From: Rhodopseudomonas infernalis
GTDB taxonomy: Bacteria > Pseudomonadota > Alphaproteobacteria > Rhizobiales > Xanthobacteraceae
DNA length: 64,000 nucleotides
Direction of reading: 5' to 3'
Assembly (NCBI RefSeq): GCF_022271405.1
Contig: NZ_JAJNAL010000026.1
Span: 1-64,000 of the forward strand
Shown piece by piece: positions 8,950 through 27,305 of this stretch. The notes beneath the pieces were generated by a model. The model searched no databases, was not told the DNA's origin, and worked only from the letters and a program-made list of their open reading frames with translations. The position numbers were made by a program, and so were the translations under genes. Position 1 is the stretch's first letter; the number at the start of each line of letters is the position of its first letter.

Positions 8950-9211
8950 GTACGGCCCAGACAGGGAGAGACGCCGCACTATTTCATCGCGGTTTTGCCT
9001 AATGCTTAAAGTTCAGATCGAAACGCATCTGCACTATTACGAGTAGTCAGGCTCGGGTTCGCAGGTTCATCGATAATGCAATCAACCAACGATTCACCAT
9101 GCGGTTGCGGTGAAGATCAAATAGCCATTTTCCGACGCCGCACCGGAGCGCCGCCAGCCAGGCTCTCCGCCGCATCGATGATCGCGTTGGTATCGAAGCC
9201 GGTGTGAGTTC

Positions 9212-12174: not shown

Positions 12175-12433
12175 CTTCCATTCCCGGTTGGCAACGGCCG
12201 GACGCTACACCAAGCGTTCCTGTGTGATAAGCGCGTCACTTGCAGATCGGCCTGCGCGGAGGCTCATTGCCGCCAATGCCGCTCGTGTGCTCAAAATCGC
12301 ACAGATTCCCGGTGCGGCCATCGCCCAAGATAGAACGTTCGCGGGATTTCCTTTATCCAGAGTTGTGGAACCGGTGGACGACACCAACCGCCGATCCGCG
12401 CCAGCCCACGCCTGTGTCCACGGAGTGCCTCTT

Positions 12434-13699
12434 ATGCCGGTCCAAGCCTCGCCCTCACGCACAGCCTCCTTGGGTTCGGCGGCCAGCGCCGCCGGCTTCT
12501 CGGAAACCGCGCTGCTCCGGATCGACGATCATCTGCAGCGGGTCTATCTCGACCCCGGAAAACTGGCCGGCACGCAGACGCTGATCTATCGCCGCGGCCA
12601 GATCGCGTATCGCTCCTCGCTCGGCCATGCCGATCGCGAGCGCAGCGTCCCGATCAAAGACGACACCATCTTCCGCATCTACTCGATGACCAAGCCGATC
12701 ACCTCGGTGGCGCTGATGATGCTGTTCGAGGAAGGGCGCGTCCAGCTCGACGATCCGGTGGCGAAGTACATTCCGGAGTGGGCCGGGCTCGGGGTGTTTC
12801 AGGCCGGCCTCGCGCCGCTGTTCCTGACCAAGCCGCCGGCGCGCCTGATGCAGGTCGTCGACCTGCTGCGGCATACGTCGGGCCTGACCTACGGCTTCCA
12901 GAATCGCACCAATGTCGACGCCGCCTATCGCGACAAGGGCATCGGCGCCTTCGAAAAGGCCGGCACGCTCGAATCCTGGATCGCCGACCTTGCGCGGATC
13001 CCGCTCGAGTTCTCGCCCGGCGACGCCTGGAACTACTCGGTGTCGACCGACGTGGTCGGCTACATCGTCCAGAAGATCAGCGGCATGCCGTTCGAGCAAT
13101 TCGTCAAGCAGCGCATCCTCGATCCACTCGGCATGGTCGACACCGACTTCCACGTCCCGCCGGCCAAAGCGCATCGCCTCGCCGCCTGCTACTCGGCCGA
13201 CGGCAAGGGCGGCATGCAGCTGTCGGACGATCCGGCGAATTCGAGCTTCCTGGCTCCGCCCGATCTGATCTCCGGCGGCGGCGGCCTGGTCTCGACCACC
13301 GACGACTACCTCACCTTCTGCCGCGCGCTGCTGAACGGCGGCGAACTCAACGGCGTCCGTCTGCTCGGGCCGAAGACGCTGAAGCTGATGACCACCAATC
13401 ACCTGCCCGGCAATCGCGATCTCACCGAGATGTCGCGCTCGATGTTCAGCGAAGCCACCAACGCCGGCATCGGCTTCGGCCTCGGCTTCGCGGTGAACAT
13501 GAACCCGGCGCAGACCCTGCTGCCGGGCAGCGTCGGCGAATATTACTGGGGCGGCGCGGCCTCGACCGCATTCTGGATCGACCCGGCCGAAGACCTGATC
13601 ACCATCTTCATGACCCAGCTGCTCCCCTCCAGCGCCTACCCGATCCGACGCGAACTCCGCACGCTGGTGTACAGCGCGATCACGGAGAGCAATGTGTAG
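12434..13699 (+). CDS. Serine hydrolase, class C beta-lactamase-like
   Basis: A 421-residue protein of the penicillin-binding/esterase group (COG1680). The catalytic SxxK motif is Ser84-Met-Thr-Lys87 (YSMTKPITS); the Tyr motif is in AWNYSVSTDVVG, and WGGAAST near the end takes the place of the third KTG/HTG-type box. There is no clear signal peptide, so it probably acts in the cytoplasm as an esterase or lactone/amide hydrolase rather than as an antibiotic-resistance enzyme (inference). The ATG at 12434 has GGAG at 12422-12425; the frame upstream to 12188 is unsupported. It diverges from the dioxygenase gene across 259 bases that hold no other gene. Confidence 0.85.
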   Translation: MPVQASPSRTASLGSAASAAGFSETALLRIDDHLQRVYLDPGKLAGTQTLIYRRGQIAYRSSLGHADRERSVPIKDDTIFRIYSMTKPITSVALMMLFEEGRVQLDDPVAKYIPEWAGLGVFQAGLAPLFLTKPPARLMQVVDLLRHTSGLTYGFQNRTNVDAAYRDKGIGAFEKAGTLESWIADLARIPLEFSPGDAWNYSVSTDVVGYIVQKISGMPFEQFVKQRILDPLGMVDTDFHVPPAKAHRLAACYSADGKGGMQLSDDPANSSFLAPPDLISGGGGLVSTTDDYLTFCRALLNGGELNGVRLLGPKTLKLMTTNHLPGNRDLTEMSRSMFSEATNAGIGFGLGFAVNMNPAQTLLPGSVGEYYWGGAASTAFWIDPAEDLITIFMTQLLPSSAYPIRRELRTLVYSAITESNV

Positions 13700-13872: not shown

Positions 13873-15414
13873 TCAGATCTTCCGGTCCCGTCCCTGCCAG
13901 AACGGATCGCGCACCGCGCGGCGGAGCAGCTTGCCGACCGGGCTCTTCGGCACATCGTCGATGAAACGCACCTGTTTCGGCACCTTGTAGCTCGCCACCC
14001 GCTCGCGCGCGAAGGCGATCAGTTCGGCCTCCTCGGCGCTGGAGTGCTTGCGCAGGGCCACGAAGGCCGCAACGCTCTCGCCCCATTTGTCGTCCGGCAG
14101 ACCGACCACCACAACCTCGCGCACAGCCGGATGCGCGGCGAGCGCGTCCTCGACCTCGCGCGGATAGACATTGTAGCCGCCTGTGACGATCATGTCCGAG
14201 GTGCGGTCGACCAGGTACAGATAGCCGTCCTCATCAAACCGCCCGACGTCGCGGGTCCGGAGCCAGCCGCCCGGCAGAAACATCTGGGCGTTGAGCTCGG
14301 GCGCGTTGTAGTAGCCCTTCATGGCGAACGGCGTGCGCAGCGCGATCTCGCCCGCTTCGCCCGGCGCAACTTCGTCGCCTTCCTCGTTGACGAGCTTGAT
14401 CTCGCAGTCGATCGATGGCCGGCCGCAGGACGCGAGCCGCTGCTCGGCCTTGGGCCCGACGTGATCCTGCTGCGTCAAATTAGTGATGAAGATCGGCGCT
14501 TCGGACTGGCCGTAATATTGCGCGAAGCGCGGCCCCCACAGCTTCAACGCGCGCAGCATCACCGGCCGCGGCATCGGCGAAGCGCCGTAGATGATGCTCT
14601 TCACCGACGAGAAATCCGCCTGCTCGATTCCAGGATGATCGAGCAGCATCCCGATCATCGTCGGCACCAGATTGAGCGCGGCCGGCTTCCAGCGCTCGAC
14701 CGCGTCGAGATAGCTCGCCGGCGTGAAGCCGGGCAGCACCGCGGCAACGCCGCCGCGAAGCCAATACGGCACGATGAAGCAGCCGGAGGCGTGGATCATC
14801 GAGGCGGCGTGCAGCATCACGTCGCCCTCGCCGACCTCCATGTTGATCAGCACGTTGGTGGCCACCGCGCCCCAGCTCGCCTGGGTGTGCTCGACCGCCT
14901 TGAGCTTGCCGGTGGTACCGGAGGTGAAGATGGTGATGACGACGTCATCGGGCTCCGGCTTGCGCGACGGCAATGCGTCGGACCCTGCCTGCGCGAGTTG
15001 CAGCAGATCATTCGGATCGGCAACGTTGCCGATGCTGATCAGCTTCAGGCCCTGCATCGTCTTGGCGAGTTCGTGGGCCCGATCCGTCAGATCCGTACCG
15101 TGGATCAGCGTATCGACGCCCGCGCCCTCCAGCATCTGCTGCTGCTCGACGAGTGACAGCCGCGAATTCAGCGGCACGCGGGATAGTCGCGATTTCACGA
15201 AGCCGAAATCGAGCGGCAGCGTATAGATCGAATTGTTCAGCAGCAGACCGACCCGCCGCCCGACGTCGAGCTTCAGCGTGTCGATCAGCACGTTGGCGAT
15301 GCGATTGGACAGAAGGTCGACCTCGGTGAAGGTCATCGTCTGGTCGCCGAACATCACCGCCGTCTTCGGCCCGTGATAGATCGCCCCACGCCGGATCATC
15401 TCGGATGCCAACAT
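13873..15414 (-). CDS. AMP-forming acyl-CoA ligase
   Basis: A 513-residue member of the ANL superfamily activating a carboxylic acid to its CoA thioester with ATP. Signatures in order are IFTSGTTGKLKAVEHT (phosphate loop), YGASPMPRP, QYYGQSEAP, the LRTRDVGRFDEDGYLYLVDRTSDMI hinge region (Asp of TRD, Arg) and the C-terminal catalytic Lys in KSPVGKLLRR. The substrate may be a medium or branched acid; sequence alone does not say. GGGAGA precedes the ATG at 15414. It is the last gene of the minus-strand catabolic series and is one of two such ligases in it, implying different chain lengths or pathway steps. Confidence 0.87.
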   Translation of the reverse strand: MLASEMIRRGAIYHGPKTAVMFGDQTMTFTEVDLLSNRIANVLIDTLKLDVGRRVGLLLNNSIYTLPLDFGFVKSRLSRVPLNSRLSLVEQQQMLEGAGVDTLIHGTDLTDRAHELAKTMQGLKLISIGNVADPNDLLQLAQAGSDALPSRKPEPDDVVITIFTSGTTGKLKAVEHTQASWGAVATNVLINMEVGEGDVMLHAASMIHASGCFIVPYWLRGGVAAVLPGFTPASYLDAVERWKPAALNLVPTMIGMLLDHPGIEQADFSSVKSIIYGASPMPRPVMLRALKLWGPRFAQYYGQSEAPIFITNLTQQDHVGPKAEQRLASCGRPSIDCEIKLVNEEGDEVAPGEAGEIALRTPFAMKGYYNAPELNAQMFLPGGWLRTRDVGRFDEDGYLYLVDRTSDMIVTGGYNVYPREVEDALAAHPAVREVVVVGLPDDKWGESVAAFVALRKHSSAEEAELIAFARERVASYKVPKQVRFIDDVPKSPVGKLLRRAVRDPFWQGRDRKI

Positions 15415-15486
15415 CGCCGTTCTCCCTTTCGTCTTCCGACCGCCACTTGAACGACGTGGCCGTTATGCGACAATCTCTCCACGAGC

Positions 15487-15594
15487 CATTCCGGGGCGCG
15501 CGCAGCGCGAACCCGGAATCCCGATGTTCAGGGCACGGCCGAGATTCCGGGTTCGTCCGCCTGCGGCGGACGCCCCGGAATGACTCATGGAGAG
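15487..15594. repeat. Palindromic intergenic repeat (CATTCCGGGGCGC family)
   Basis: The arms CATTCCGGGGCGCGCGCAGC and CCTGCGGCGGACGCCCCGGA enclose the inner pair GAACCCGGAATCCCGA / GAGATTCCGGGTTC. It fills the gap between the enoyl-CoA hydratase and ligase genes. Confidence 0.85.
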
Positions 15595-15608
15595 CGTGTG
15601 CCCCTAAG

Positions 15609-16388
15609 TCACTTCCCCGGCCACACCGGCTTGCGTTTTTCGGCGAAGGCCTTGAGGCCTTCTTTGGCGTCTTCGGTCATCGCCAGCAGCGCGATCTGAC
15701 TTTCGGTGTAGGCGATGCTCTCGTCGAACGACATCGACGCGATAGCACGCATTGCGTATTTGCCGCGGCGGATCGCGGTCGGCGACTTGTCGGTGAGACG
15801 CTTCACCAGCCATTCGACCTTGGCGTCGAGTTCGGCGCCCGGCACCACGTAGTTGAGCAAGCCGGCGTCACGTGCCGCCGCCGCATCGAACGGCTCGCCG
15901 GTCAGCGCCCATTCGGCAATCAGCCGGCGCGGCGCGATGTCCTGCAGCAGGCTCATCACCTGCATCGGGAATACGCCGACCTTCACTTCCGGCAGGCCGA
16001 ACTGCACACTGTCGGCCGCGACCGCCATGTCGGTCATGCACAACAGGCCCATGCCGCCGGCCATGCAGGTGCCGTTGACGCGCGCGATCGACGGCTTGGT
16101 GGCATTCTGCGCGAGCCGCAGCAGGTCGGCGTAGTCGACGTTCGGCTTGGAGAAATCGAACGCGAATGCCGCGCCGGTCGATTGCAGGTCGGCGCCGGCG
16201 CAGAACGCCTTGTCGCCGGCCCCGGTCAGCACGATCACGCGCACAGATGGATCGTCGTGCGCCTGCTTCCAGCCGCTTGTGATGCCCTCGACCACGCCGG
16301 CGTTGATGGCATTGCGCTTGTCGGGGCGGTTGATGGTGATCCACAGCGCCTGATCGCGCTGTTCGATGATCACGGCGTCGTTGGTCAT
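15609..16388 (-). CDS. Enoyl-CoA hydratase/isomerase family protein
   Basis: A 259-residue crotonase-fold protein. The oxyanion-hole segments are AFCAGADLQS and NGTCMAGGMGLLCMTDMAVAA, with FGLPEVKVGVFP after them. The second region has Met/Leu where classical hydratases often have a catalytic Glu, so hydratase, isomerase or methylglutaconyl-CoA hydratase-type activity must be kept open. Next to a biotin-dependent acyl-CoA carboxylase it most resembles the LiuC/AtuE position in leucine or terpene degradation operons (inference from order). The ATG at 16388 starts the usual MTNDAVIIEQRDQALWITINRP. Confidence 0.85.
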   Translation of the reverse strand: MTNDAVIIEQRDQALWITINRPDKRNAINAGVVEGITSGWKQAHDDPSVRVIVLTGAGDKAFCAGADLQSTGAAFAFDFSKPNVDYADLLRLAQNATKPSIARVNGTCMAGGMGLLCMTDMAVAADSVQFGLPEVKVGVFPMQVMSLLQDIAPRRLIAEWALTGEPFDAAAARDAGLLNYVVPGAELDAKVEWLVKRLTDKSPTAIRRGKYAMRAIASMSFDESIAYTESQIALLAMTEDAKEGLKAFAEKRKPVWPGK

Positions 16389-16407
16389 TTCAATCGTCCT
16401 CCCTCTC

Positions 16408-16487
16408 CGTTATTGCGAGCGCAGCGAAGCAATCCAGTTCCGCGCACTCAGCTGGATTGCTTCGTCGCTTCGCTCCTCGCAATGACG
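16408..16487. repeat. Palindromic intergenic repeat (CGTTATTGCGAG family)
   Basis: The element runs from CGTTATTGCGAGCGCAGCGA to TCGCTCCTCGCAATGACG, with the inner pair AAGCAATCCAG / CTGGATTGCTT. It is sister to the copy at 9212-9296 and lies between the carboxylase alpha and hydratase genes. Confidence 0.85.
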
Positions 16488-16509
16488 GGATAGTCAGTGC
16501 TTCTCACCT

Positions 16510-18492
16510 CTACGCCACCGCTTCGATCTGCGCGACGATGCGGCCGGTGGTGACTTGTTCGCCTTCGGCGACGTCGATCGTCACGATGCCCGAGGTCGGT
16601 GCGAGATGCACGTGTTCCATCTTCATCGCCTCCAGCGTCAGAACCGGCTGGCCGGCCTCGACGCGGTCCCCGGCTTTCGCCAGCAGAGCGACGACGCGGC
16701 CGTTGAGCGCCGCGCGCAGCTTGCCGTCGCCGCCCCCCGCCGCGGCGCGCTGCGGCGCCGCCCGGGTCAGATCGACAATGGTGTTGGCAACGCCGAGTCG
16801 TTGCACGAACAACCGGTCGCTGGAGCGGTGATAGACCGCCGACTCGCTGAAATCCTCAGCCTGGAAGCGGATGCTCTCTTTGCTCAGCGCCTCGATCGTG
16901 AAGCTGACGCGACGGCCGTCGTGGACCGTAAGGTAGCGCCCGTCCCGCTCGCGCATCACCTCGCAGCTCTGCGCTGCGCCATCGAGTTCGAGCCGCAGCA
17001 AGGTCGGAAACGCAGCGGCCAGCGAGCGACCCGCGCGGTGCTGATAGGCGTGCGGATCCGTGACGTAGAGCAGCAGCGCGGCGACAGCGGCGGCGGGCAC
17101 CGCGTCCTCCGGCAACGCACGCGTCAGCGCCTCGCGGTTCTGCGCGATGAACGCCGTGGTCGCCTCACCGCGTGCGAACACGTCGTGGCGCAGACACGCT
17201 GCCAGGAAGCCGCGGTTGGTAGCGACGCCGAACGCCACCGTATTGTCGAGGCCGTGCACCAGCTTGCGCCGCGCCTCCTCACGGCTGGCGCCGACCGCGA
17301 TAATCTTAGCGATCATCGAATCGTAGTAGGGCGAGATCTCAGACCCGGATTGCAGCGCGTGCTCGACGCGTAGTTCGCCCGGCATCCGCCACACCGCCAT
17401 CCGGCCGGATTGCGGCATGAAGTCCTTGTCGGCGTCTTCCGAGCACAGCCGCACTTCGATGGCGTGGCCCTTGAAGGTCACGTCGTCCTGGCGCAGCGGC
17501 AGCGGCTCGCCGGCGGCGATGCGCAGCTGCAGTTCGACCAGATCGAGCCCGGTGATCGCTTCTGTCACCGGATGCTCGACCTGCAGCCGGGTGTTCATTT
17601 CCATGAAGTAGAACTGGCCCTGCGCGTCGAGCAGGAACTCCAGCGTCCCGGCGCCCTCGTAGCCGATCGCCTTGACGGCGTTGACCGCGACCACGCCCAT
17701 CTGCTCGCGCAGCGCTTCGGAAACAGCCGGCGACGGCGCCTCCTCGATCAGCTTCTGGTGCCGGCGCTGCACCGAGCAGTCGCGCTCGCCGAGATGGATC
17801 GCGTGACCATAGCGATCGCCGAACACCTGGATCTCGATGTGGCGCGGATCGACGATCGCGCGCTCGAGGATCACGGTCGGATCGCCGAACGCGCTCTGCG
17901 CTTCGGACCGCGCGCTGCGCAGCGCATCCGGAAGTGCGGCAGCGTCCTTCACCAGCCGCATGCCGCGACCGCCGCCGCCGGCGACCGCCTTGATCATCAC
18001 CGGGAAGCCGATCTTGCCGGCTTCCGCGATCATCGCGGGATCGGTTTGATCCGCGCCCTGATAACCGGGCACGCAAGGCACGCCGGCCTTCAGCATGATC
18101 TCCTTGGCCCCGGCCTTGTTGCCCATCGAGGCAATCGACTCCGCCGACGGCCCGATGAAGACCAGCCTGGCATCTCGGCACGCCGCAGCGAAATCCTCAT
18201 TCTCGGCCAGGAAGCCGTAGCCGGGATGCACCGCATCGGCGCCGGCAATCTTCGCGGCTTCGATCAGCGCCGGAATGTTGAGATAGGACTCGGACGGCTG
18301 CGCGCCGCCGATCGCCACCGCCTCGTCGGCTTCGCGCACATGCGCCGAATCCGCGTCTGCGGTCGAATACACGGCGACGACGCCGTAGCCCATGCGGCGC
18401 GCGGTGCGCATCACGCGCAGCGCGATCTCGCCACGGTTGGCGATCAGGATCTTGGTGAACGGCGTTGCTTTCGACATCTGCGTCATCATCAT
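16510..18492 (-). CDS. Biotin-dependent acyl-CoA carboxylase, alpha subunit (biotin carboxylase + BCCP)
   Basis: A 660-residue fusion of biotin carboxylase (about 10-455: KILIANRGEIALRV, AGGGGRGMRLV for ATP binding, EMNTRLQVEHPVTE in the active site) and a C-terminal biotin carrier domain with the biotinyl Lys624 in EAMKMEH. It carboxylates biotin with ATP and bicarbonate for the beta subunit next to it. Its size and layout fit the 3-methylcrotonyl-, geranyl- or propionyl-CoA carboxylases, not acetyl-CoA carboxylase, whose parts are separate genes. The ATG at 18492 overlaps the beta-subunit stop (ATGA); an in-frame ATG at 18477 is an alternative start. Production should be coupled to the beta subunit. 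Confidence 0.88.
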   Translation of the reverse strand: MMMTQMSKATPFTKILIANRGEIALRVMRTARRMGYGVVAVYSTADADSAHVREADEAVAIGGAQPSESYLNIPALIEAAKIAGADAVHPGYGFLAENEDFAAACRDARLVFIGPSAESIASMGNKAGAKEIMLKAGVPCVPGYQGADQTDPAMIAEAGKIGFPVMIKAVAGGGGRGMRLVKDAAALPDALRSARSEAQSAFGDPTVILERAIVDPRHIEIQVFGDRYGHAIHLGERDCSVQRRHQKLIEEAPSPAVSEALREQMGVVAVNAVKAIGYEGAGTLEFLLDAQGQFYFMEMNTRLQVEHPVTEAITGLDLVELQLRIAAGEPLPLRQDDVTFKGHAIEVRLCSEDADKDFMPQSGRMAVWRMPGELRVEHALQSGSEISPYYDSMIAKIIAVGASREEARRKLVHGLDNTVAFGVATNRGFLAACLRHDVFARGEATTAFIAQNREALTRALPEDAVPAAAVAALLLYVTDPHAYQHRAGRSLAAAFPTLLRLELDGAAQSCEVMRERDGRYLTVHDGRRVSFTIEALSKESIRFQAEDFSESAVYHRSSDRLFVQRLGVANTIVDLTRAAPQRAAAGGGDGKLRAALNGRVVALLAKAGDRVEAGQPVLTLEAMKMEHVHLAPTSGIVTIDVAEGEQVTTGRIVAQIEAVA

Positions 18493-20111
18493 GCCCGCGA
18501 CACCGCGAACTGCATCTGCTGCGGGGTGCGCGCCTCGCTCTCACGGCAGACCGCCAGCACTTCGGCGAGCACCGCGCGGGTGTCGCGCGGATCGATCACG
18601 CCGTCGTCGAGCATCCGCGCCGAGGTCGCGAACACGTCCATCTGCCCATTGAACACCGCGGTGATACCCGCCTTCATCTGGTCGAGCTTCTCGCGATCGA
18701 CCGGCACGCCCTTTCGAGCCGCACCCGCCTCGGCGACGATCGCCATGGTCTCCGCCGCCTGCTCGCCGCCCATCACCGCGGTCTTGGCGTTCGGCCAGGA
18801 GAAGCAGAATCGCGGATGGAAACCGCGGCCGCACATGCCGTAGTTGCCGGCGCCGAACGATGCGCCGCAGTAGATCGTAATCTGCGGCACCGACGCCGAC
18901 GTCACCGCCTGGATCATCTTCGAGCCGTGCTTGATCATGCCGGCTTCCTCGTAGGCCTTGCCGACGATGTAGCCGGTGGTGTTGTTGAGATACAGGATCG
19001 GCGTGCGCGACTGGCAGCACGCCTGAATGAAGTGGGTCGCCTTGTTGGCGCCCGCCGGATCGAGCGGACCGTTGTTGGTGATGATGCCGATCGGCTGTCC
19101 GACGATCTTGGCGTGGCCGACCACCGTGGCCGGCCCATAATTCGGCGACATCTCGGTGAAATCGGAATCGTCGACGATCCGCGCGATCACCTGCCGCATG
19201 TCGACCGGGCGCTTGTGGTCGGTCGGCATGATGCCGAGCAGTTCTTCGGCGGCGTAGAGCGGCGGATGATAGTCCGCGGGGTCAGGCCCTGGCCCGGAAC
19301 GGTCCCAGGGCAGATCGGCCATGATGTCGCGCGCGATCCGCAGCGCGTCACGGTCGTCCTCGGCAAGATAATCGCCGAGCCCCGAAACCGAGGTGTGCAT
19401 CTCGGCGCCGCCGAGTTCTTCCTCGGTGGCGATCTCGCCGGTCGCGGCCTTCAGCAGCGGCGGGCCGGCCAGGAACGCGCGCGTCCGGCCGCGCACCATC
19501 ACGATGTAATCCGACAAACCGGTCTGATACGCGCCGCCCGCCGTCGATGAACCGTGCGTAACTGTGACGACCGGCAGCCCGGCCGCGGACAGCAGCGCGA
19601 GATTGCGAAAGATGTTTCCGCCGCGGACGAAATCCTCGACGCGGTAGCGCAGCAGATTGGCGCCGGCGCTCTCGACCAGTTGCACGAACGGCAGCTTGTT
19701 CTCCAGCGCCAGTTCCTGAATGCGCAGCGTCTTGTCGAGACCATAGGGCTGCAGCGCGCCGGCGTCGATGCCGGAATCGTTGGCGCTGATCATGCAGCGG
19801 ATGCCGGCGACGTAGCCGATGCCGCCGATCACGCCGCCGCCCGGCGTGCTCTTGTCGGCATTGGTCGTGTCGAACATGTAGCCGGCCAGCGTCGACAGTT
19901 CGAGGAACGGCGCTCCCGGATCGAGCACCAGCGCCACCCGCTCGCGCGGCAGTAACTGCCCGCGCTTGTGGAAGCGCTCGGCGGACGCCGCCGACGCCGT
20001 GCGCGCCCGCGCCTCCAGCATCCGCATCCGCTCGATCAGCGCCAGCATGCCGTCGCGATTGGCCCTGAAGCCTTCGCTCCCCGGCGCGACGGTGGATTCG
20101 ATCACTGCCAT
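18489..20111 (-). CDS. Biotin-dependent acyl-CoA carboxylase, beta subunit (carboxyltransferase)
   Basis: A 540-residue carboxyltransferase with both crotonase-like halves. The N-terminal half has GGVIGGIGYVAG and THGSSTAGGAYQTGLSDY, the C-terminal half NTTGYIVGKAYEEAGMIKHG and the acyl/biotin pocket stretch YCGASFGAGNYGMCGRGFHPRFCFSW(P). The Gly-rich GASFGAGNYGMCGR run is typical of methylcrotonyl- and geranyl-CoA carboxylase beta chains; propionyl-CoA carboxylase beta chains differ here. I therefore lean to a branched 3-methyl-enoyl-CoA substrate (inference). The ATG at 20111 is preceded by AAGGA; the longer frame to 20174 is not needed. It overlaps the alpha gene by four bases. Confidence 0.87.
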   Translation of the reverse strand: MAVIESTVAPGSEGFRANRDGMLALIERMRMLEARARTASAASAERFHKRGQLLPRERVALVLDPGAPFLELSTLAGYMFDTTNADKSTPGGGVIGGIGYVAGIRCMISANDSGIDAGALQPYGLDKTLRIQELALENKLPFVQLVESAGANLLRYRVEDFVRGGNIFRNLALLSAAGLPVVTVTHGSSTAGGAYQTGLSDYIVMVRGRTRAFLAGPPLLKAATGEIATEEELGGAEMHTSVSGLGDYLAEDDRDALRIARDIMADLPWDRSGPGPDPADYHPPLYAAEELLGIMPTDHKRPVDMRQVIARIVDDSDFTEMSPNYGPATVVGHAKIVGQPIGIITNNGPLDPAGANKATHFIQACCQSRTPILYLNNTTGYIVGKAYEEAGMIKHGSKMIQAVTSASVPQITIYCGASFGAGNYGMCGRGFHPRFCFSWPNAKTAVMGGEQAAETMAIVAEAGAARKGVPVDREKLDQMKAGITAVFNGQMDVFATSARMLDDGVIDPRDTRAVLAEVLAVCRESEARTPQQMQFAVSRA

Positions 20112-20168
20112 TCGGTGTTCCTTGTGGTTCCGGGACACATTAGAGCGCCCGAAATCTCGCCTCTGGTT

Positions 20169-20272
20169 CGTCATTCCGGGGCGCGACCGCAGGTCGCGAA
20201 CCCGGAATCTCGAAGTGCTCTGAACGTCGGGATTCCGGGTTCACGCCGCGGTGCGGCGTGACCCGGAATGAC
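20169..20272. repeat. Palindromic intergenic repeat (CGTCATTCCGGGGCGC family)
   Basis: CGTCATTCCGGGGCGCGACC and its inverted arm GCGGCGTGACCCGGAATGAC enclose GAACCCGGAATCTCGA / CGGGATTCCGGGTTCAC. It lies between the second acyl-CoA ligase and the carboxylase genes. Confidence 0.85.
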
Positions 20273-20278
20273 AGTGCC

Positions 20279-21883
20279 TCACCCCGTCTGCGCCATCGTG
20301 AAATAGTCCGCATGCTGGTTGCGTAGTTCGACCTTGCGCAGTTTGCCGGTGGCGGTCATCGGCATCTCATCGACGATCTGCACCAGCTTCGGCACCTGGA
20401 ATCCGCCGAGCGTCTTACGACAATGCTCGATGATCTCCGCCTCGGTCGCGGCCGCGCCCGGCTTGAGCTTGACGAAGCCGGACACCGCCTCGCCCCATTG
20501 CGGATGCGGCAGGCCGACCACCGCGGCGTTCATCACCGCAGGATGCGCCAGCAGCGTCTCCTCGATCTTCACGGAGGCGACGTTCTCGCCGCCGGACTTG
20601 ATCACGTCCTTCTTGCGGTCGAGAAACAGCACCTCGCCGTGTTCGTCGATCAGCGCCAGATCGCCGGTGTGATGCCAGCCGAATTTTCGCGCGGCCTCGG
20701 TGGCGTCCGGATCCTTGTAGTAGCCGAGCATCACGTTGGGGCCGCGGTGCACGATCTCGCCCACCTCGCCGACCGGCAGCAGATTGCCGGCGTCGTCCAT
20801 GATCGCGGTCTCGTTGACCATGGTGGACTCGCCCCAATAATTGCCGAAGCGCGCCAGTTGGCGGTCCGGCTGTGACATCGTCGTCGCCGGATACATCTCG
20901 GTCTGGCCCGACGGCTGCACGAAGGTCGGGCATAGTTCGGCGATCGCGCGCTCCAGCAGCGGCCGCGGCATCGGCGCCATGGTGGTGATGCAGCAGCGCA
21001 GCGTCGACAGGTCGAACTCGCCGCGCCGCGGATGGTCGAGGATCACCTGATACATCAGCGGCAGGCCGATGAACACGGTGAGCCGGTCGCGCTGGATCGC
21101 CTCCATGCAAGCCACGGGGTCGAAGCCGCGCATCAGCGCCATCTTGCCGCCGACCGCGAGATAGGACAGCAGCACCACATGGGCGGCGCAATGGAACAGC
21201 GGAAACTGCCCGCTGATGCCGTCATTTCGCGTGAGCTGCATCTCGATCGCGTTGCTCATCACCGCCATCACCACCGCGAGATGACAGTGCATCGCGCCCT
21301 TCGGCCGCGACGTGGTGCCGGAGGTGTAGATGATCATCGCGAGGTCGCGATCGTCGAATGCGATTTCCGGCTCGATCTCGGACTGTCCCTCGACCAGCTG
21401 GCCGAAGCTCTGCAGCCCCGCTTCCGCCGCCTTGCCGGTGAGATCGACCGCGATCAGCGCGATGCCGCGCTGCTCGAGCGCGGCGCGGCGCTCGGGCTGG
21501 CCGTGCAGATTGTCGTCGATCAGCGCGAACTTCACCTCGGCATGATCGAGGATGTAGCTCATGTCGGCCGGGCCGAGCATGGTGTTGATCGGCACCCAGA
21601 CAAGGCCGGCGCGGTGAATGCCGAACAGCGCTTTGACGAACTCGACCGAGTTGTTGCAGATCGTCGAGATCTTGTCGCCGGGCTTCAGGCCGCGGGCGAC
21701 CAGATAGTTGGCGAAGCGGTTGGCGTCGCGTTCGAGCTCCTTGTAGCTGACCTGACGCGCCCCGTCGGTCAATGCGACGCGGTCGGCAAAACGGATCGCC
21801 GATTTGCGCAGGATGTCGCCGATCGCCACCCGGCCGATCCGGCCCGGTCCCGGCACGCCGCCGGTCGCTTCGAGATTGGTCAT
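20279..21883 (-). CDS. AMP-forming acyl-CoA ligase
   Basis: A 534-residue ANL-superfamily ligase, distinct in sequence from the one at 13873. Motifs are IIYTSGTTSRPKGAMHCH (P-loop), QPSGQTEMYPAT, HHTGDLALIDEHGEVLFLDRKKDVIKSGGENV and the catalytic Lys in MTATGKLRKVELR. The GWHHTGDLA hinge and the overall layout resemble the crotonobetaine/cyclohexanecarboxylate-type ligases. It probably activates the acid that feeds the pathway. It lies between the beta-keto acid cleavage enzyme and the carboxylase genes, all on the same strand, so a common substrate is likely. The ATG at 21883 starts MTNLEATGGV. Confidence 0.86.
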   Translation of the reverse strand: MTNLEATGGVPGPGRIGRVAIGDILRKSAIRFADRVALTDGARQVSYKELERDANRFANYLVARGLKPGDKISTICNNSVEFVKALFGIHRAGLVWVPINTMLGPADMSYILDHAEVKFALIDDNLHGQPERRAALEQRGIALIAVDLTGKAAEAGLQSFGQLVEGQSEIEPEIAFDDRDLAMIIYTSGTTSRPKGAMHCHLAVVMAVMSNAIEMQLTRNDGISGQFPLFHCAAHVVLLSYLAVGGKMALMRGFDPVACMEAIQRDRLTVFIGLPLMYQVILDHPRRGEFDLSTLRCCITTMAPMPRPLLERAIAELCPTFVQPSGQTEMYPATTMSQPDRQLARFGNYWGESTMVNETAIMDDAGNLLPVGEVGEIVHRGPNVMLGYYKDPDATEAARKFGWHHTGDLALIDEHGEVLFLDRKKDVIKSGGENVASVKIEETLLAHPAVMNAAVVGLPHPQWGEAVSGFVKLKPGAAATEAEIIEHCRKTLGGFQVPKLVQIVDEMPMTATGKLRKVELRNQHADYFTMAQTG

Positions 21884-21943
21884 GACACTCCCTCGGATGT
21901 GAGGCAGCTCTTGCGGCTGCTTGGTTGGTGATGCTTTCGTTTT

Positions 21944-22044
21944 GTCGTTCCGGGGCGCGCGTAGCGCGAACCCGGAACCTCAGACGAGCAGAACATCTCG
22001 GGATTCCGGGTTCACGCCGCTCCGCGGCGCGCCCCGGAATGACG
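21944..22044. repeat. Palindromic intergenic repeat (GTCGTTCCGGGGCGC family)
   Basis: The arms GTCGTTCCGGGGCGCGCGTA and GCGGCGCGCCCCGGAATGACG enclose GAACCCGGAACCTCAG / CTCGGGATTCCGGGTTCAC. It lies between the cleavage enzyme and ligase genes. Confidence 0.85.
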
Positions 22045-22049
22045 CGGCC

Positions 22050-22916
22050 TCAGTGCAGGATGCCGTAAATCGCCCGCGCCTCGTCCGGGCTCGCGATCTC
22101 ACGTCCGGCACGCCGCGCGCAGCCGGCGATCTCCTCGATCAGCTGGCCGTTCGAGGTCACCTTCTCGCCATTGGCGAGATAGAACGTGTCCTCGAGCCCG
22201 GTGCGCAGATGGCCGCCGAGATCGGCGCAGGCCTGATGCAGCGGCCAGATCTCGGCGCGGCCGATCGCGGTCACCTGCCAATGCGCCTCGGGGCGCTTCA
22301 GCTTCAAGATGATCGGCAGCAGGTCTGGATCGGCCGGCATGCCGGAAGCGACACCCATCACGAGGTTGTACTCGAGCGGGCCGGAATACATGCCGTTCTG
22401 CACATACATGCCGACGCAGCGGACGATGCCGACGTCGAAGCACTCGAACTCCGGAATGGTCCCGGCGTCCTTCATGGCGCCGAGGAAGTCCTGAATCTTC
22501 TCGACGGAGTTGTCGAACATCATCGGCGGCCAGGCCCAGCTGTTGTCGGACTTGACCTTGAGATAGTTCAGCGAGCCGGCGTTACAGGCGGCGATCTCCG
22601 GCTTGGTCTCGCGGATGCAGGCGAGCGGCCCTTCGTAGTGCGGCCCCGAGGTGCCGGAGGTGTGATTGATGATGACACCGGGACACGCTTCGCGGATCGC
22701 CTGCTGGATCTCGCGCGACACCGCGACGTCCCAGCTCGGCAGATGGCCTTTGTCCGGCCGCTGGTCACGCAGATGGATGTGCATGATCGAGGCGCCGGCA
22801 TTGAATGCCGCCTTGGCCTCGCGCGCCATCTCTTCCGGCGTCACCGGAACGTGGTGCTGCTTGGGATCCGTCAGCACGCCGTTCAGCGAGCAGGTGATTA
22901 CGGCCTTGTCGCTCAT
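22050..22916 (-). CDS. Beta-keto acid cleavage enzyme (BKACE, DUF849)
   Basis: A 288-residue TIM-barrel enzyme of the family founded by 3-keto-5-aminohexanoate cleavage enzyme (Kce). The start MSDKAVITCSLNGVLTD and the Zn ligands His46 and His48 in MHIHLRDQ match the family exactly in position. BKACEs transfer the acetyl part of a beta-keto acid to acetyl-CoA or use acyl-CoA, giving acetoacetate and a new acyl-CoA. The natural keto acid here is unknown. Its place between an AraC regulator and CoA ligase/carboxylase genes suggests it cleaves the product of the carboxylase branch, where leucine and terpene pathways would use HMG-CoA lyase (inference). Confidence 0.87.
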   Translation of the reverse strand: MSDKAVITCSLNGVLTDPKQHHVPVTPEEMAREAKAAFNAGASIMHIHLRDQRPDKGHLPSWDVAVSREIQQAIREACPGVIINHTSGTSGPHYEGPLACIRETKPEIAACNAGSLNYLKVKSDNSWAWPPMMFDNSVEKIQDFLGAMKDAGTIPEFECFDVGIVRCVGMYVQNGMYSGPLEYNLVMGVASGMPADPDLLPIILKLKRPEAHWQVTAIGRAEIWPLHQACADLGGHLRTGLEDTFYLANGEKVTSNGQLIEEIAGCARRAGREIASPDEARAIYGILH

Positions 22917-23045
22917 TCCTCATCGACCCTTTCGGTGATGTTGCGCGCGCGAACAACACGCGGCGCAAACCAGTCGAACGGGATGATGCGGAAGCCGTGC
23001 ATATGCATCTTGCGTGCACGCGCTGCTACACGCCGGACGCACGCG

Positions 23046-23870
23046 TTAGGGGCGTCCCTGGCGAAACTCCGCAACGCTGGCGGCATGCGGATCGCTGCGC
23101 CAGATCGCCAGATCGCGCGAGCCAGAGAAGATCGCGCGCGGCTGCAAGCCGTAGAAACGCCGGATCGAATGGCTGAAGTGAGTCGAGTCCGGATAGCCGA
23201 TGTCCTGTGCCAGATGCGCGAGATTGATATCCGCGTTGACGAAGTGCAGCAGATGCCGCGCCCGCTTCCAGGCACGCAGCGCGCGGAACGAGACGCCGGT
23301 CTCGTCCTTGAACAGATGCAGGAAGCGCGACTGCGACAGGTTGGCCCCCACCGCGCAATCCTCCGCGGTCACCGCCGCGCCGGAAATATCGTTGAGCCGC
23401 GCGAGCGCTCCCGCAATGCGGCGATCGATCCGCCGCGCAGGCAGAACCTCGCCGAAGAACAGATTGTCGAATTCCGAGGTGGTGAAGCCCTCGCGGCGTC
23501 CGGTCGCCACCAGCGAGCCATGCGCCTGGCGGACCCGGTCGGCGAGCGCGCCGTCACCGGCGCCAACGATCCGGGCGCCGAGCGCGGCCATCGGCGCGGG
23601 CAGCACCGTCTCCGGCTCGATCACCAAGCAGACGACGCTGCGGCTGTCGGATTCGACGTTGTGCGGCACATAAGGCGGGACGAACGCGGTGGCCCCGGTC
23701 TGGGCCTGGCCATCCTCGATCGTCACCCTCAGCTGCCCGTGGAGGGAGACATAGATCGAATACGCGCCGCTGGTGCGGCGGCGCGGTCGGCCCAGCAGAC
23801 CGGCATAGAACACGCGCTCAGGGCTGATCAGCATCAGATGTCCGGACGCCGGACACGTCTCGTCACTCAT
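23046..23870 (-). CDS. AraC-family transcriptional regulator with cupin sensor domain
   Basis: A 274-residue regulator. The N-terminal half (about 15-95) is a cupin-like ligand pocket: SGAYSIYVSLHGQLRVTIEDG and ATAFVPPYVPHNVES. The C-terminal ~100 residues hold the two AraC helix-turn-helix units, with AVTAEDCAVGANLSQSRFLHLFKDETGVSF and INLAHLAQDIGYPDSTHFSHSIRRFYGLQP. It probably senses the pathway substrate or its CoA ester and controls the surrounding genes, as it is embedded within them on the same strand. The ATG at 23870 has GGAGGA just upstream; the open frame extends to 24164 without similarity. Confidence 0.87.
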   Translation of the reverse strand: MSDETCPASGHLMLISPERVFYAGLLGRPRRRTSGAYSIYVSLHGQLRVTIEDGQAQTGATAFVPPYVPHNVESDSRSVVCLVIEPETVLPAPMAALGARIVGAGDGALADRVRQAHGSLVATGRREGFTTSEFDNLFFGEVLPARRIDRRIAGALARLNDISGAAVTAEDCAVGANLSQSRFLHLFKDETGVSFRALRAWKRARHLLHFVNADINLAHLAQDIGYPDSTHFSHSIRRFYGLQPRAIFSGSRDLAIWRSDPHAASVAEFRQGRP

Positions 23871-24006
23871 GGGTCCTCCCGGGGTCTTCGCCCGTTCCCG
23901 CACCGAGATGCGGCGCCCTCTTCGGAGCGGGCGGAGAATACAGCATCGCCGGGCGTTGTCACCGGGCGTGATTGCCGCGGAAACGGATCGCCCGGCCCCC
24001 GAGCGA

Positions 24007-24657
24007 TCAGGCGCGGCGCGCCACCTTCTGCTCGTCGCCGGCGCGGGTCTCTGCCTCGACGGCCCGCCGATACCCCTCGCGCTGCTGCACGCGCTGCCAA
24101 TAGGCCGCGACGTTCGGCCCGAATTGATTGGAGAGGCCGAGATTGTCGGCCAGCCGCAGCGCATAGCCGATCGTCACATCGGCGGCGGTGAACCGGCCCT
24201 GGGCCAACCATTCGGTCTGCCCCGTCGCCGCCTCGACGGCGCGGAGCCGGCCGAGAAACCACTTGGCGTAATCCTCGACCACTTGCGGCTGCCGCCGTTC
24301 GGCGGGCTCCAGCGTGCCGTAGCGCAGCACGAGCGTCTGCGGGAACGTCAGCGTCGCGTCGCTGAAGAACATCCAGTTGAGATAGGTCCCATAGTCGGCC
24401 TCGCCGACATCGACCACCAGCGGAGTCGGGCCGTGCCGCGTGCCGAGATAATGGCAGATGCCCGAAGACTCGGTCATCTTGGTGTCGCCATCGATCATGA
24501 ACGGAATGGTGCCGAGCGGATTGATCGCGAGATATTCCTTGGCGAGCGCCCGCGGCGGAAAAGGCAGCATCTTGAGCTCGTAGTCGAGCCCCATCTCCTC
24601 CAGCATCCACAACGGCCGAAACGACCGCGCGCCATGGCAGTGATACAAGGTGATCAT
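24007..24657 (-). CDS. Glutathione S-transferase family protein
   Basis: A 216-residue cytosolic GST. The thioredoxin-like N-terminal domain begins MITLYHCHGARSFRPLWMLEEMGLDYE and has the cis-Pro in GTIPFMIDGD and the glutathione gamma-Glu contact TESSGICHYL. The helical C-terminal domain (about 90-205) holds the N-capping Asp motif FTAADVTIGYAL. Ser12 (or a nearby residue of GARSFR) is the probable thiol-activating residue. Its role beside acyl-CoA dehydrogenase and ligase genes could be detoxification of electrophilic enoyl intermediates (inference). It sits 136 bases upstream of the AraC gene on the same strand. Confidence 0.85.
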   Translation of the reverse strand: MITLYHCHGARSFRPLWMLEEMGLDYELKMLPFPPRALAKEYLAINPLGTIPFMIDGDTKMTESSGICHYLGTRHGPTPLVVDVGEADYGTYLNWMFFSDATLTFPQTLVLRYGTLEPAERRQPQVVEDYAKWFLGRLRAVEAATGQTEWLAQGRFTAADVTIGYALRLADNLGLSNQFGPNVAAYWQRVQQREGYRRAVEAETRAGDEQKVARRA

Positions 24658-24723
24658 CGATTTCGCTCCCTCTCAGCGTCGTTGTTTATGGCCGCCGCCG
24701 CTCGCCAAGAACGCGGTGCGCTC

Positions 24724-24854
24724 CCTCGCCCCGCTCTTGCGGGGAGAGGGTTGGGGTGAGGGGCGACGCAGGCACTGACTCTCAGCCTCGCGGAGACGCC
24801 CCCTCACCCGGATTGCTTCGCAATCCGACCTCTCCCCGCTCGCGGGAAGAGGTG
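24724..24854. repeat. Palindromic intergenic repeat (CCCTCGCCCCGCTC family)
   Basis: A different repeat type from its neighbours: CCTCGCCCCGCTCTTGCGGG-GAGAGGG, GGGTGAGGGGC, then CCCCCTCACCC and GACCTCTCCCCGCTCGCGGG. The arms pair as a long imperfect hairpin. It fills the 217-base gap between the dehydrogenase gene ending at 24875 and the GST gene. Confidence 0.8.
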
Positions 24855-24874
24855 AACGGCGCCGAACGGTGACG

Positions 24875-26029
<1,155 letters not shown>

Positions 26030-26042
26030 CGGTCTCTTCCCT

Positions 26043-26155
26043 CGTCATTCCGGGGCACGCGCCGCAGGCGTGCGAACCCGGAATCTCCCTTGTTGTTGTT
26101 CTTGTCTCACCACCTCGAGATTCCGGGTTCGCGCTGCGCGCGCCCCGGAATGACG
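26043..26155. repeat. Palindromic intergenic repeat (CGTCATTCCGGGGCAC family)
   Basis: CGTCATTCCGGGGCACGCGC and GCGCGCCCCGGAATGACG enclose GAACCCGGAATCTCCC / CTCGAGATTCCGGGTTCGCG. It lies between the two acyl-CoA dehydrogenase genes. Confidence 0.85.
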
Positions 26156-26165
26156 GTGCGTATCG

Positions 26166-27305
26166 CTAAAGCCCCATCTGACGGCTGGCGAGGTCCTTCA
26201 TGATTTCCTCGGTGCCGCCGCCGATCGCGTTGACCTTGACGTCGCGATAGATGCGCTCGACCTTGACGCCGCGCATGTAGCCGGCTCCGCCGAAGATCTG
26301 CACCGCTTCCGAGGCGCAGAACGCCATCGTCTGCGTCGCCTGGTTCTTCAGCATGCAGATCTCGGCGATCGGGCTTTCGCCCTGCTCAACCCGCCAGGCC
26401 AGCAGCTCCAGCATCGCCTGTGACGCGGTGATCTTCTGCGCCATGTCGACCAGCTTGTGACGGATCACCTGATGCTTCGTCAGCGGCTTGCCGAAGGTGA
26501 CACGCTCCTTGGCGTAGGCAATCGCGTCGTCCAGGCAGACCCGCGACGCGGCGATGCAGCCGGCCGCCATCGTCAGCCGCTCGCTGTTGAAGTTCTGCAT
26601 GATGATCTTGAAGCCGGCACCTTCCTGCCCGAGCAGGTTGCCGGCCGGCACGCGGCAATTGTCGAAATGCAGCGTCGCGGTGTCGGACGCCCACCACCCC
26701 ATCTTCTTCAGCGGCGTCCGCGTCAGGCCCGGCGTGTCGCCCGGGATCAGCAGCAGGCTGACGCCGCCCGGCCCGTCCCCGCCGGTGCGCACCGCGGTGG
26801 TGATGTAGTCGGCCCGCATGCCGGACGTGATGAAGGTCTTCTCGCCATTCACCACGTAGTGATCACCGTCGCGGACCGCGCGGGTGCGCAGATTGGCGAC
26901 GTCCGAGCCGCCGGATGGCTCGGTGATCGCCAGCGCCGAGATCTTTTTGCCGGACAGAATCTCCGGCAGGACCCGGGCCTTCAGCTCAGGCGAGCCGGCG
27001 CGCGCGATCGGCGGCGCGCCGATCGAATGGCTGTTGAGGCTGGCGCTGACGCCGCCGGCACCGGCCCGCGCCAGTTCCTGCGTCGCCACGATCCACATGA
27101 ACTGATCGGTCGGCGTGCCGCCATACTCTTCCGGGAAGCCGAGGCCCAGCAGGCCGATCGCCGCCGCCTTCTCGTAAAGTTCGCGGGGAAAGCCGCCCGC
27201 CTCGTCCCATTCGGTGGCGAACGGTTCGATTTCCTTCTGGACGAAGCGACGCACCACGTCGCGAAAGGCCATGTGGTCGGCGGTGTAGAACAGAGAATTG
27301 GTCAA
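26166..27305 (-). CDS. Acyl-CoA dehydrogenase
   Basis: A 379-residue FAD enzyme: ALAITEPSGGSDVANLRTRA and TFITSGMRADY for flavin contact, KKMGWWASDTATLHFDNCRVP, RVTFGKPLTKHQVIRHKLVDMA, and IFGGAGYMRGVKVERIYRDVKVNAIGGGTEEIM, with the catalytic-base candidate Glu in GTEEIM. The sequence differs clearly from the paralogue at 24875, so the pair is not a recent duplication. It is the first gene of the ten-gene minus-strand series; the promoter should lie in the 98 bases after the cytochrome gene or farther upstream. Confidence 0.87.
   Translation of the reverse strand: MTNSLFYTADHMAFRDVVRRFVQKEIEPFATEWDEAGGFPRELYEKAAAIGLLGLGFPEEYGGTPTDQFMWIVATQELARAGAGGVSASLNSHSIGAPPIARAGSPELKARVLPEILSGKKISALAITEPSGGSDVANLRTRAVRDGDHYVVNGEKTFITSGMRADYITTAVRTGGDGPGGVSLLLIPGDTPGLTRTPLKKMGWWASDTATLHFDNCRVPAGNLLGQEGAGFKIIMQNFNSERLTMAAGCIAASRVCLDDAIAYAKERVTFGKPLTKHQVIRHKLVDMAQKITASQAMLELLAWRVEQGESPIAEICMLKNQATQTMAFCASEAVQIFGGAGYMRGVKVERIYRDVKVNAIGGGTEEIMKDLASRQMGL

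What the first reader, a model, noticed from the sequence alone, without database searches (positions are those of the whole stretch)
13873..27305. Ten-gene acid degradation cluster joining an MCC/GCC-type carboxylase with a BKACE instead of HMG-CoA lyase
Seen: two CoA ligases, two acyl-CoA dehydrogenases, a crotonase, a biotin carboxylase alpha/beta pair with a methylcrotonyl/geranyl-type beta chain, a beta-keto acid cleavage enzyme, a GST and an AraC regulator, all on one strand. Leucine (liu) and terpene (atu) pathways use the same first steps but end in HMG-CoA lyase, which is absent here. Inferred: a route that carboxylates a branched enoyl-CoA, hydrates it, and ends in BKACE cleavage with acetyl-CoA, for a substrate not yet described.
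Basis: partly seen in the sequence, partly recalled or inferred. Interest (0 to 1): 0.72.

Follow-up and report, generated by a model that had tools for sequence, protein, structure and literature searches.

The report
Terpene-acid degradation operon, swapped cleavage enzyme
This gene cluster from a Rhodopseudomonas-type bacterium looks like a version of the known bacterial pathway for breaking down terpene-derived branched acids, in which the usual but poorly understood protein AtuA seems to have been replaced by an unrelated cleavage enzyme, and that swap gives a clue to what AtuA does.

Summary
The ten genes are real, all on the minus strand. The carboxylase is not leucine-type: its beta chain is closest to geranyl-CoA carboxylase (GCC; 615 vs 477 bits for MCC) and carries the GCC marker Gly. 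One dehydrogenase is 67% identical to AtuD of an atuABCDEFG operon. So this is an acyclic-terpene-utilisation (Atu) type pathway. Missing HMG-CoA lyase is normal for GCC clusters (0 of 30 contexts); this genome has one elsewhere. BKACE is the unusual part. In 398 genomes, 16 of 16 carriers of this BKACE subfamily carry GCC. Of 80 GCC genomes, all 9 without AtuA have it; of 92 GCC copies, 11 lie near BKACE, 39 near AtuA, none near both, 42 near neither. In one operon BKACE sits in AtuA's slot. Best reading: BKACE displaces AtuA at the C-C cleavage stage, giving acyl-CoA plus acetoacetate. Whether it follows HMG-CoA lyase or replaces it is open: two BKACE genomes lack that lyase. No paper found in my searches describes the swap.

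The parts
26166..27305 (-). acyl-CoA dehydrogenase 1 (acad1; TTG start)
   Evidence: Pfam; present in 62 of 62 BKACE loci with flank; relatives near GCC in several other families
24875..26029 (-). acyl-CoA dehydrogenase 2, AtuD-like (predicted citronellyl-CoA-type dehydrogenase)
   Evidence: Pfam; 66.8% identical to the AtuD of L149; 59 of 64 loci
24007..24657 (-). glutathione S-transferase family protein; suggested E/Z isomerase (inference)
   Evidence: Pfam; 68 of 68 loci; relatives in L134, L135, L160, L161; annotated GST in L207, L208
23046..23870 (-). AraC-type regulator (ORF can extend to 24164; likely start at 23870)
   Evidence: Pfam HTH_18; start judged; 69 of 69 loci
22050..22916 (-). 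BKACE (beta-keto acid cleavage enzyme), GCC-linked subfamily
   Evidence: Pfam; 16 of 16 carrier genomes have GCC; alignment
20279..21883 (-). AMP-binding CoA ligase A
   Evidence: Pfam; 27 of 70 loci
18489..20111 (-). geranyl-CoA-carboxylase-type carboxyltransferase beta chain (ORF extends to 20174; likely start 20111)
16510..18492 (-). biotin carboxylase/BCCP alpha chain
   Evidence: 49.6% identical to the AtuF of L149
15609..16388 (-). crotonase-family hydratase (only 29% identical to AtuE of L149)
   Evidence: 8 of 63 loci
13873..15414 (-). AMP-binding CoA ligase B
   Evidence: Pfam; 7 of 63 loci

Best explanation
The cluster encodes an Atu-type (acyclic terpene utilisation) pathway for 3-methyl-branched, probably isoprenoid, acids, in which BKACE has displaced AtuA. 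Steps: CoA ligase activates the acid; an AtuD-like dehydrogenase makes the 2-enoyl-CoA; the GST may set the cis geometry that GCC needs (inference); the GCC-type carboxylase carboxylates the gamma-methyl group; a crotonase hydrates, giving 3-hydroxy-3-R-glutaryl-CoA. In the published Atu scheme this is split to acetate and a 3-oxoacyl-CoA. With BKACE the most likely route in this organism is: HMG-CoA lyase from the separate liu-type locus releases acetyl-CoA and a free 3-oxo acid, and BKACE converts that acid with acetyl-CoA into R-CO-CoA plus acetoacetate. Shown: gene content, GCC type by sequence, BKACE-GCC co-occurrence, exclusion of AtuA at cluster level. Inferred: substrates, order of steps, isomerase role, and whether HMG-CoA lyase takes part.
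For: GCC type. AtuD/AtuF-like partners. BKACE subfamily only in GCC genomes, 16 of 16 among 398 (by genus 7 of 7 within 27 of 213), with no match listed between 1e-119 and the 1e-60 cut-off. In plasmids one of 644 matching records exceeds 60% identity (69%; next listed 35.8%), and that one carries it in a GCC cluster with a GST. AtuA absent from 9 of 80 GCC genomes, all 9 BKACE carriers; of 92 GCC copies 11 near BKACE, 39 near AtuA, 0 near both, 42 near neither. L156: BKACE-atuB-C-D-E-F-G; L155: atuB-C-D-E-F-BKACE; one genome has two GCC clusters, one with BKACE (L153) and one with AtuA (L154). The beta-chain tree forces at least 4 changes of the BKACE/AtuA label. AtuA's profile hits a chain deposited as citramalate lyase subunit A. 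HMG-CoA lyase in own genome, 420 bits vs cut-off 246.
Against: No expression, growth or enzyme data. 42 of 92 GCC copies have neither gene nearby (AtuA may be elsewhere or contigs end), and G139 has only weak AtuA pieces and no BKACE. The genome-level AtuA count takes any PF07287 match, and many are short frames (about 435-480 aa) that may not be the Atu-pathway protein. Three BKACE genomes also carry an AtuA-family gene: one in a second GCC cluster, two unlinked. In G122 BKACE is not linked to GCC. Two of 12 BKACE genomes lack HMG-CoA lyase, against the relay form. The hydratase is only 29% identical to AtuE. A single AtuA sequence found no PDB match at E <= 1; only the profile did, at 36 bits. 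Fisher values treat related genomes as independent. Neither AtuB nor AtuG is in the cluster.
Confidence: 0.68

Rival explanations
1. BKACE acts directly on 3-hydroxy-3-R-glutaryl-CoA: retro-aldol to bound acetyl-CoA and 3-oxo acid, followed by its usual acyl exchange, so one enzyme yields R-CO-CoA and acetoacetate and no HMG-CoA lyase is needed.
For: G004 and G059 carry GCC and BKACE, but no LiuE-type lyase at E <= 1e-40 and only two long PF00682 frames each (547 and 543; 547 and 585 aa). Their cluster is a compact set: hydratase, GCC alpha, GCC beta, ligase and BKACE on one strand, AtuD-like dehydrogenase and GST diverging from it (neighbours of L134). AtuA, which BKACE replaces, is named a lyase in PMC4847356 and its profile matches a chain deposited as citramalate lyase. 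HMG-CoA lyase is found about equally often with BKACE (10 of 12) and without (58 of 68; some of these best matches are only 35-43% identical).
Against: No BKACE is known to do this (recalled). G004 and G059 are one genus and may use another lyase family (for example CitE-type, not searched). 10 of 12 BKACE genomes do have HMG-CoA lyase.
Confidence: 0.28
2. The same chemistry, but the natural substrate is not a monoterpene acid: a longer isoprenoid acid (for example phytol-derived) or another 3-methyl-branched acid.
For: The Gly in the beta chain opens a large pocket (PMC4673880), which I do not take to fix the chain length; the cluster holds two ligases and no alcohol dehydrogenase family.
Against: acad2 is 67% identical to AtuD of a full atuABCDEFG operon.
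Confidence: 0.35
3. BKACE is a neighbour serving another substrate (for example carnitine, a lysine intermediate or an aromatic 3-oxo acid) and only happens to sit here.
For: The BKACE family is promiscuous (PMC4922564), and no NCBIfam equivalog cut-off is met.
Against: 16 of 16 carrier genomes have GCC; linkage in six families of the sampled genomes plus a Haematobacter plasmid; the residue aligned to Kce Glu14 is an invariant Leu.
Confidence: 0.05
4. The cluster is a duplicate leucine/isovalerate (liu) operon.
For: Same enzyme classes.
Against: Beta chain GCC-type with Gly, not Phe; a separate locus with an MCC-type beta chain, alpha chain and HMG-CoA lyase exists.
Confidence: 0.03

Closest known systems
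Acyclic terpene utilisation (Atu) pathway, atuABCDEFGH of Pseudomonas
   Same: GCC alpha/beta, AtuD-like dehydrogenase, hydratase and ligase classes; relatives L153, L155 and L156 keep atuB-C-D-E-F beside BKACE
   Different: AtuA replaced by BKACE; no AtuB/AtuG in the cluster; AraC regulator and GST added; hydratase only distantly AtuE-like
Leucine/isovalerate (liu) pathway
   Same: gamma-carboxylation of a 3-methyl-2-enoyl-CoA, hydration, C-C cleavage (recalled chemistry)
   Different: MCC-type beta chain with Phe and HMG-CoA lyase; present separately in this genome
BKACE / Kce (3-keto-5-aminohexanoate cleavage enzyme)
   Same: nearly whole-length homology (E 1.3e-38 to 2y7d); residues aligned to the Zn His pair, Arg, Glu and Asp kept (residue roles recalled)
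   Different: discrete subfamily; Leu in place of Kce Glu14; tied to GCC
Deoxyribonate pathway with BKACE (PMC6365646, passages)
   Same: BKACE used as the cleavage step of a catabolic cluster, acetoacetate released
   Different: sugar-acid substrate; no carboxylase in the passages seen

Membership tests
Geranyl-CoA carboxylase (beta) | Gly at the position of the MCC Phe, and no 3-residue insertion before it (PMC4673880) | tested here: met
   Gly in the window; own LiuB has Phe and the 3-residue insertion; the window chain is one residue longer than GCC a few positions earlier
Geranyl-CoA carboxylase (beta) | activity on cis-geranyl-CoA | not testable with these tools
   no assay
Atu pathway | AtuC, AtuF and AtuD homologues together | tested here: met
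   53%, 50% and 67% identity to those of L149
Atu pathway | AtuA (PF07287) | tested here: not met
   no match in the whole genome; the same search finds a match in 71 of 80 GCC genomes, though in none of the 14 control genomes
Atu pathway | AtuE hydratase | tested here: inconclusive
   crotonase present but 29% identical to AtuE of L149
Atu pathway | AtuB/AtuG alcohol/aldehyde dehydrogenases | tested here: not met
   no SDR among the ten genes; not searched genome-wide
Liu/MCC pathway | Phe-type MCC beta chain with HMG-CoA lyase in the operon | tested here: not met
BKACE | PF05853 over cut-off, with the Kce catalytic residues | tested here: met
   293 vs 24.8 bits; H46, H48, R238, E242, D243 invariant in 10 of 10; roles recalled
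BKACE | 3-oxo acid plus acetyl-CoA to acyl-CoA plus acetoacetate | not testable with these tools
   no assay
Kce and other named BKACE equivalogs in NCBIfam | score over the equivalog cut-off | tested here: not met
   197 vs 382, 164 vs 430, 158 vs 350 bits

The most novel reading that the evidence does not exclude
Probability: 0.28. Interest if true: 0.78.

Novelty: new variant of a known kind. Interest (0 to 1): 0.6.

Why it matters
Papers disagree on which enzyme cleaves the carboxylated and hydrated terpene-CoA: PMC4847356 names AtuA, PMC4097962 names LiuE (passages). The BKACE/AtuA exchange, and GCC genomes with AtuA or BKACE but no LiuE-type lyase (12 of 80), make this directly testable. 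It also predicts a substrate class for a BKACE subfamily found in many Bradyrhizobium and Rhodopseudomonas genomes, and a candidate (GST or MDMPI-type protein) for the trans-to-cis geranyl-CoA isomerisation, for which the passage seen in PMC8637051 names no gene.

Tried and rejected
Searches used ligase A by mistake in place of the beta chain; they were not used for the carboxylase argument. Viral contigs gave no relative of accB or of AtuA. hhalign found no homology between the BKACE and AtuA profiles (shallow alignments of 10 and 11 sequences), so the swap appears to be between unrelated proteins. A duplicate-liu reading was rejected. GST class could not be settled: best NCBIfam match GstA at 52 bits, under its cut-off, and weak PDB matches. 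NCBIfam equivalogs do not assign a substrate. Bellinzoni 2011 on Kce is not held, so residue roles are recalled. Literature: searches listed no paper that by its title or the shown start of its abstract links BKACE to GCC or terpene catabolism; the listings were capped (15 of 593, 10 of 13, 20 of 28). PMC12918008, the one hit, was seen in the listing only. Papers opened, by passages only: PMC4673880, PMC12133276 (not used), PMC4922564, PMC6365646, PMC4847356, PMC4097962, PMC8637051.
Full report
Observation. In 5'-3' order: acad1 (26166-27305), acad2 (24875-26029), gst (24007-24657), araC (23046-23870, likely start), BKACE (22050-22916), ligase A (20279-21883), carboxylase beta (18489-20111, likely start), carboxylase alpha (16510-18492), crotonase (15609-16388), ligase B (13873-15414). 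Spacing is 121-217 bases except a 4-base overlap of beta and alpha. The closest named relatives are Rhodopseudomonas palustris-group genomes.

Conservation. A scan of genome contigs with the BKACE gave 80 loci (the best 80 of 228), 78 of them titled Rhodopseudomonas or Bradyrhizobium. Among those with enough flank (at least 60% identity, 40% for AraC), accB is present in 70 of 70, accA 63 of 63, gst 68 of 68, araC 69 of 69, acad1 62 of 62, acad2 59 of 64; ligase A 27 of 70, crotonase 8 of 63, ligase B 7 of 63. The conserved core is therefore acad1-acad2-gst-araC-BKACE-accB-accA. These loci were chosen by the BKACE, so they show linkage in one lineage only.

Carboxylase type. The beta chain scores 615 bits against geranyl-CoA carboxylase (5ikl_B) and 477 against methylcrotonyl-CoA carboxylase (3u9r_B). 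Jurado et al. (PMC4673880, passages seen) give a sequence test: Gly in GCC versus Phe in MCC, and a 3-residue insertion before it in MCC. The window has Gly and lacks the insertion; this genome's own MCC beta chain has both. In the 39 GCC-type rows that column is Gly in 37 and Ala in two (L154, L157), never Phe. The window chain has one extra residue a few positions earlier. The own-genome MCC beta chain lies on contig C12 beside an alpha chain and an HMG-CoA lyase (NF004283, 420 bits against a cut-off of 246). That lyase is the only LiuE-like hit in the genome at E <= 1e-40; of the five PF00682 hits the other four match it only weakly or not at all.

Atu-type pathway. The letters were given by me from this order and homology. 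Window acad2 is 66.8% identical to its AtuD, accB 53% to AtuC, accA 50% to AtuF, but the crotonase only 29% to AtuE. None of the 30 GCC-bearing contexts scanned by tblastn at 1e-8 (among L133-L166, mostly about 9 kb either side, some cut by contig ends) shows a LiuE-like gene, so its absence from the window cluster is not distinctive.

BKACE is tied to GCC. In the same 398 Pseudomonadota genomes, GCC-type beta chains (taken as E <= 1e-150; the marker residue was checked only in the rows) occur in 46 and this BKACE subfamily (E <= 1e-60) in 16; all 16 are among the 46 (Fisher 7e-17; by genus 7 of 7 within 27 of 213, 2.5e-7). Nine of the 16 are one genus. In 80 GCC genomes the subfamily is sharply bounded: identities are 61% or more, then 37% or less. 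In 72,556 plasmids 644 have some match, one above 60% (69%; the next listed is 35.8%; 25 of 644 rows shown). That one, Haematobacter massiliensis pOT1-4, has carboxyltransferase, biotin carboxylase, two enoyl-CoA hydratase-related genes, acyl-CoA dehydrogenase, GST and BKACE in a row. This is a single case, but it was looked at after the linkage had been proposed.

BKACE excludes AtuA. AtuA (PF07287) is absent from 9; all 9 carry the BKACE. Of 12 BKACE genomes 9 lack AtuA; of 68 without BKACE all have some PF07287 match, in one (G139) only weak pieces. Many PF07287 frames are short (about 435-480 aa) and may not be the Atu-pathway protein. By genus, the 5 genera without AtuA are all among the 8 with BKACE. 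Of 92 GCC copies, 11 have BKACE within 15 kb, 39 have AtuA, none both, 42 neither (copies under the score limits are not counted). The three genomes with both: G398 has two GCC clusters, one with BKACE (L153) and one with AtuA (L154); in G111 and G122 the AtuA-family gene is on another contig than the GCC genes and only 37-41% identical to AtuA of L149. In G122 BKACE too is on another contig than the GCC genes. In L156 BKACE stands where AtuA stands in atuABCDEFG; L155 is atuBCDEF-BKACE. Of seven plasmid records with GCC five were opened: Haematobacter has BKACE, Achromobacter xylosoxidans and Sphingobium have AtuA, Tistrella pTM1 shows neither within 12 kb, and Pseudoalteromonas shows only a carboxyltransferase with SDR genes. 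On a beta-chain tree of 40 rows (contexts with a near-complete beta chain, 8 named loci, the window and the own MCC chain) the BKACE and AtuA labels need five changes each, at least four forced by well-supported branches; the labels are still more clustered than shuffled ones (8 and 5 of 500 shuffles as low), and a change may be a gain or a loss. The profiles of BKACE and AtuA show no homology.

What the swapped step is. [quoted passage not shown] PMC4097962 (passages) gives that role to LiuE and cites enzyme work for it. Here the AtuA profile matches one PDB sequence, deposited under the names AtuA family protein and citramalate lyase subunit A (9erq, E 2.6e-8, 36 bits); a single AtuA sequence found nothing at E <= 1, and the related paper was not seen. 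Twelve of 80 GCC genomes lack a LiuE-type lyase at 1e-40 (10 with AtuA, 2 with BKACE); the best matches of some of the 68 positives are only 35-43% identical. In 9 of the 12, including both BKACE genomes, all PF00682 hits have frames of 523 aa or more. So C-C cleavage without HMG-CoA lyase may occur with either protein, and AtuA and BKACE both plausibly act at that stage.

Mechanism. HMG-CoA-lyase-type cleavage of 3-hydroxy-3-R-glutaryl-CoA gives acetyl-CoA and the free 3-oxo acid R-CO-CH2-COOH (established chemistry, recalled), which are exactly the two substrates of BKACE. BKACE would then give R-CO-CoA and acetoacetate. I judge this relay most likely where HMG-CoA lyase is present (10 of 12 BKACE genomes, including this one). 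Direct cleavage by BKACE is chemically conceivable, because the hydroxyglutaryl-CoA is the aldol adduct of its two substrates, and is favoured by G004 and G059. The residues aligned to the Kce Zn ligands and catalytic Arg, Glu and Asp are invariant in 10 of 10 members, while the position of Kce Glu14, recalled as binding the substrate amine, is an invariant Leu, which suits an uncharged hydrophobic R.

GST. GCC works on cis-geranyl-CoA, and trans-geranyl-CoA is said to be isomerised first (PMC4673880 and PMC8637051, passages). Of the 30 GCC contexts, 6 show a relative of the window GST (L134, L135, L160, L161, L163, L166), 4 an MDMPI-type protein (PF11716; L141, L143, L146, L147), none both and 20 neither; two plasmid clusters have an annotated GST. 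Both families include known thiol-dependent maleylpyruvate isomerases (recalled), so an E/Z isomerase role is a reasonable inference but untested, and clusters with neither must manage otherwise.

Limits. The evidence is comparative only. Related genomes inflate the Fisher values. The papers opened were read by passages only, and no paper linking BKACE with GCC was found in the searches listed under Tried and rejected.

Noticed in passing
window 24007-24657; L134, L135, L160, L161, L163, L166, L207, L208 (GST); L141, L143, L146, L147 (MDMPI): A GST or an MDMPI-type protein (PF11716), never both in the contexts seen, sits beside GCC genes in 10 of 30 contexts; candidate for the unassigned trans-to-cis geranyl-CoA isomerase.
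   Followed up: partly
G414, G620, G693, G078, G502, G597, G477, G504, G599, G114: Ten GCC genomes with a PF07287 match have no LiuE-type HMG-CoA lyase at E <= 1e-40, which suggests AtuA itself cleaves the hydroxyglutaryl-CoA.
   Followed up: partly
L208 (Tistrella mobilis pTM1) 22226-23149: A GCC/GST/AraC cluster with neither BKACE nor AtuA within 12 kb, but an annotated CoA ester lyase about 9 kb from the GCC beta gene; possibly a third solution for the cleavage step.
   Followed up: no
L147 (G067): GCC beta, MDMPI and BKACE in a row without an adjacent alpha chain, with hydantoinase/oxoprolinase A and B, LysR and PaaX genes upstream.
   Followed up: no
window 6928-8979 (-), 10406-11605 (-), 12188-13699 (+): Neighbours beyond ligase B: a GGDEF/EAL protein, an aldo/keto reductase and a beta-lactamase-family (PF00144) hydrolase; no transporter family among the ten flanking ORFs scanned.
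   Followed up: no
G139 (L150, L162): A GCC cluster with AtuB-F but no BKACE and only weak AtuA pieces in the genome; the one genome of the 80 that fits neither scheme.
   Followed up: no
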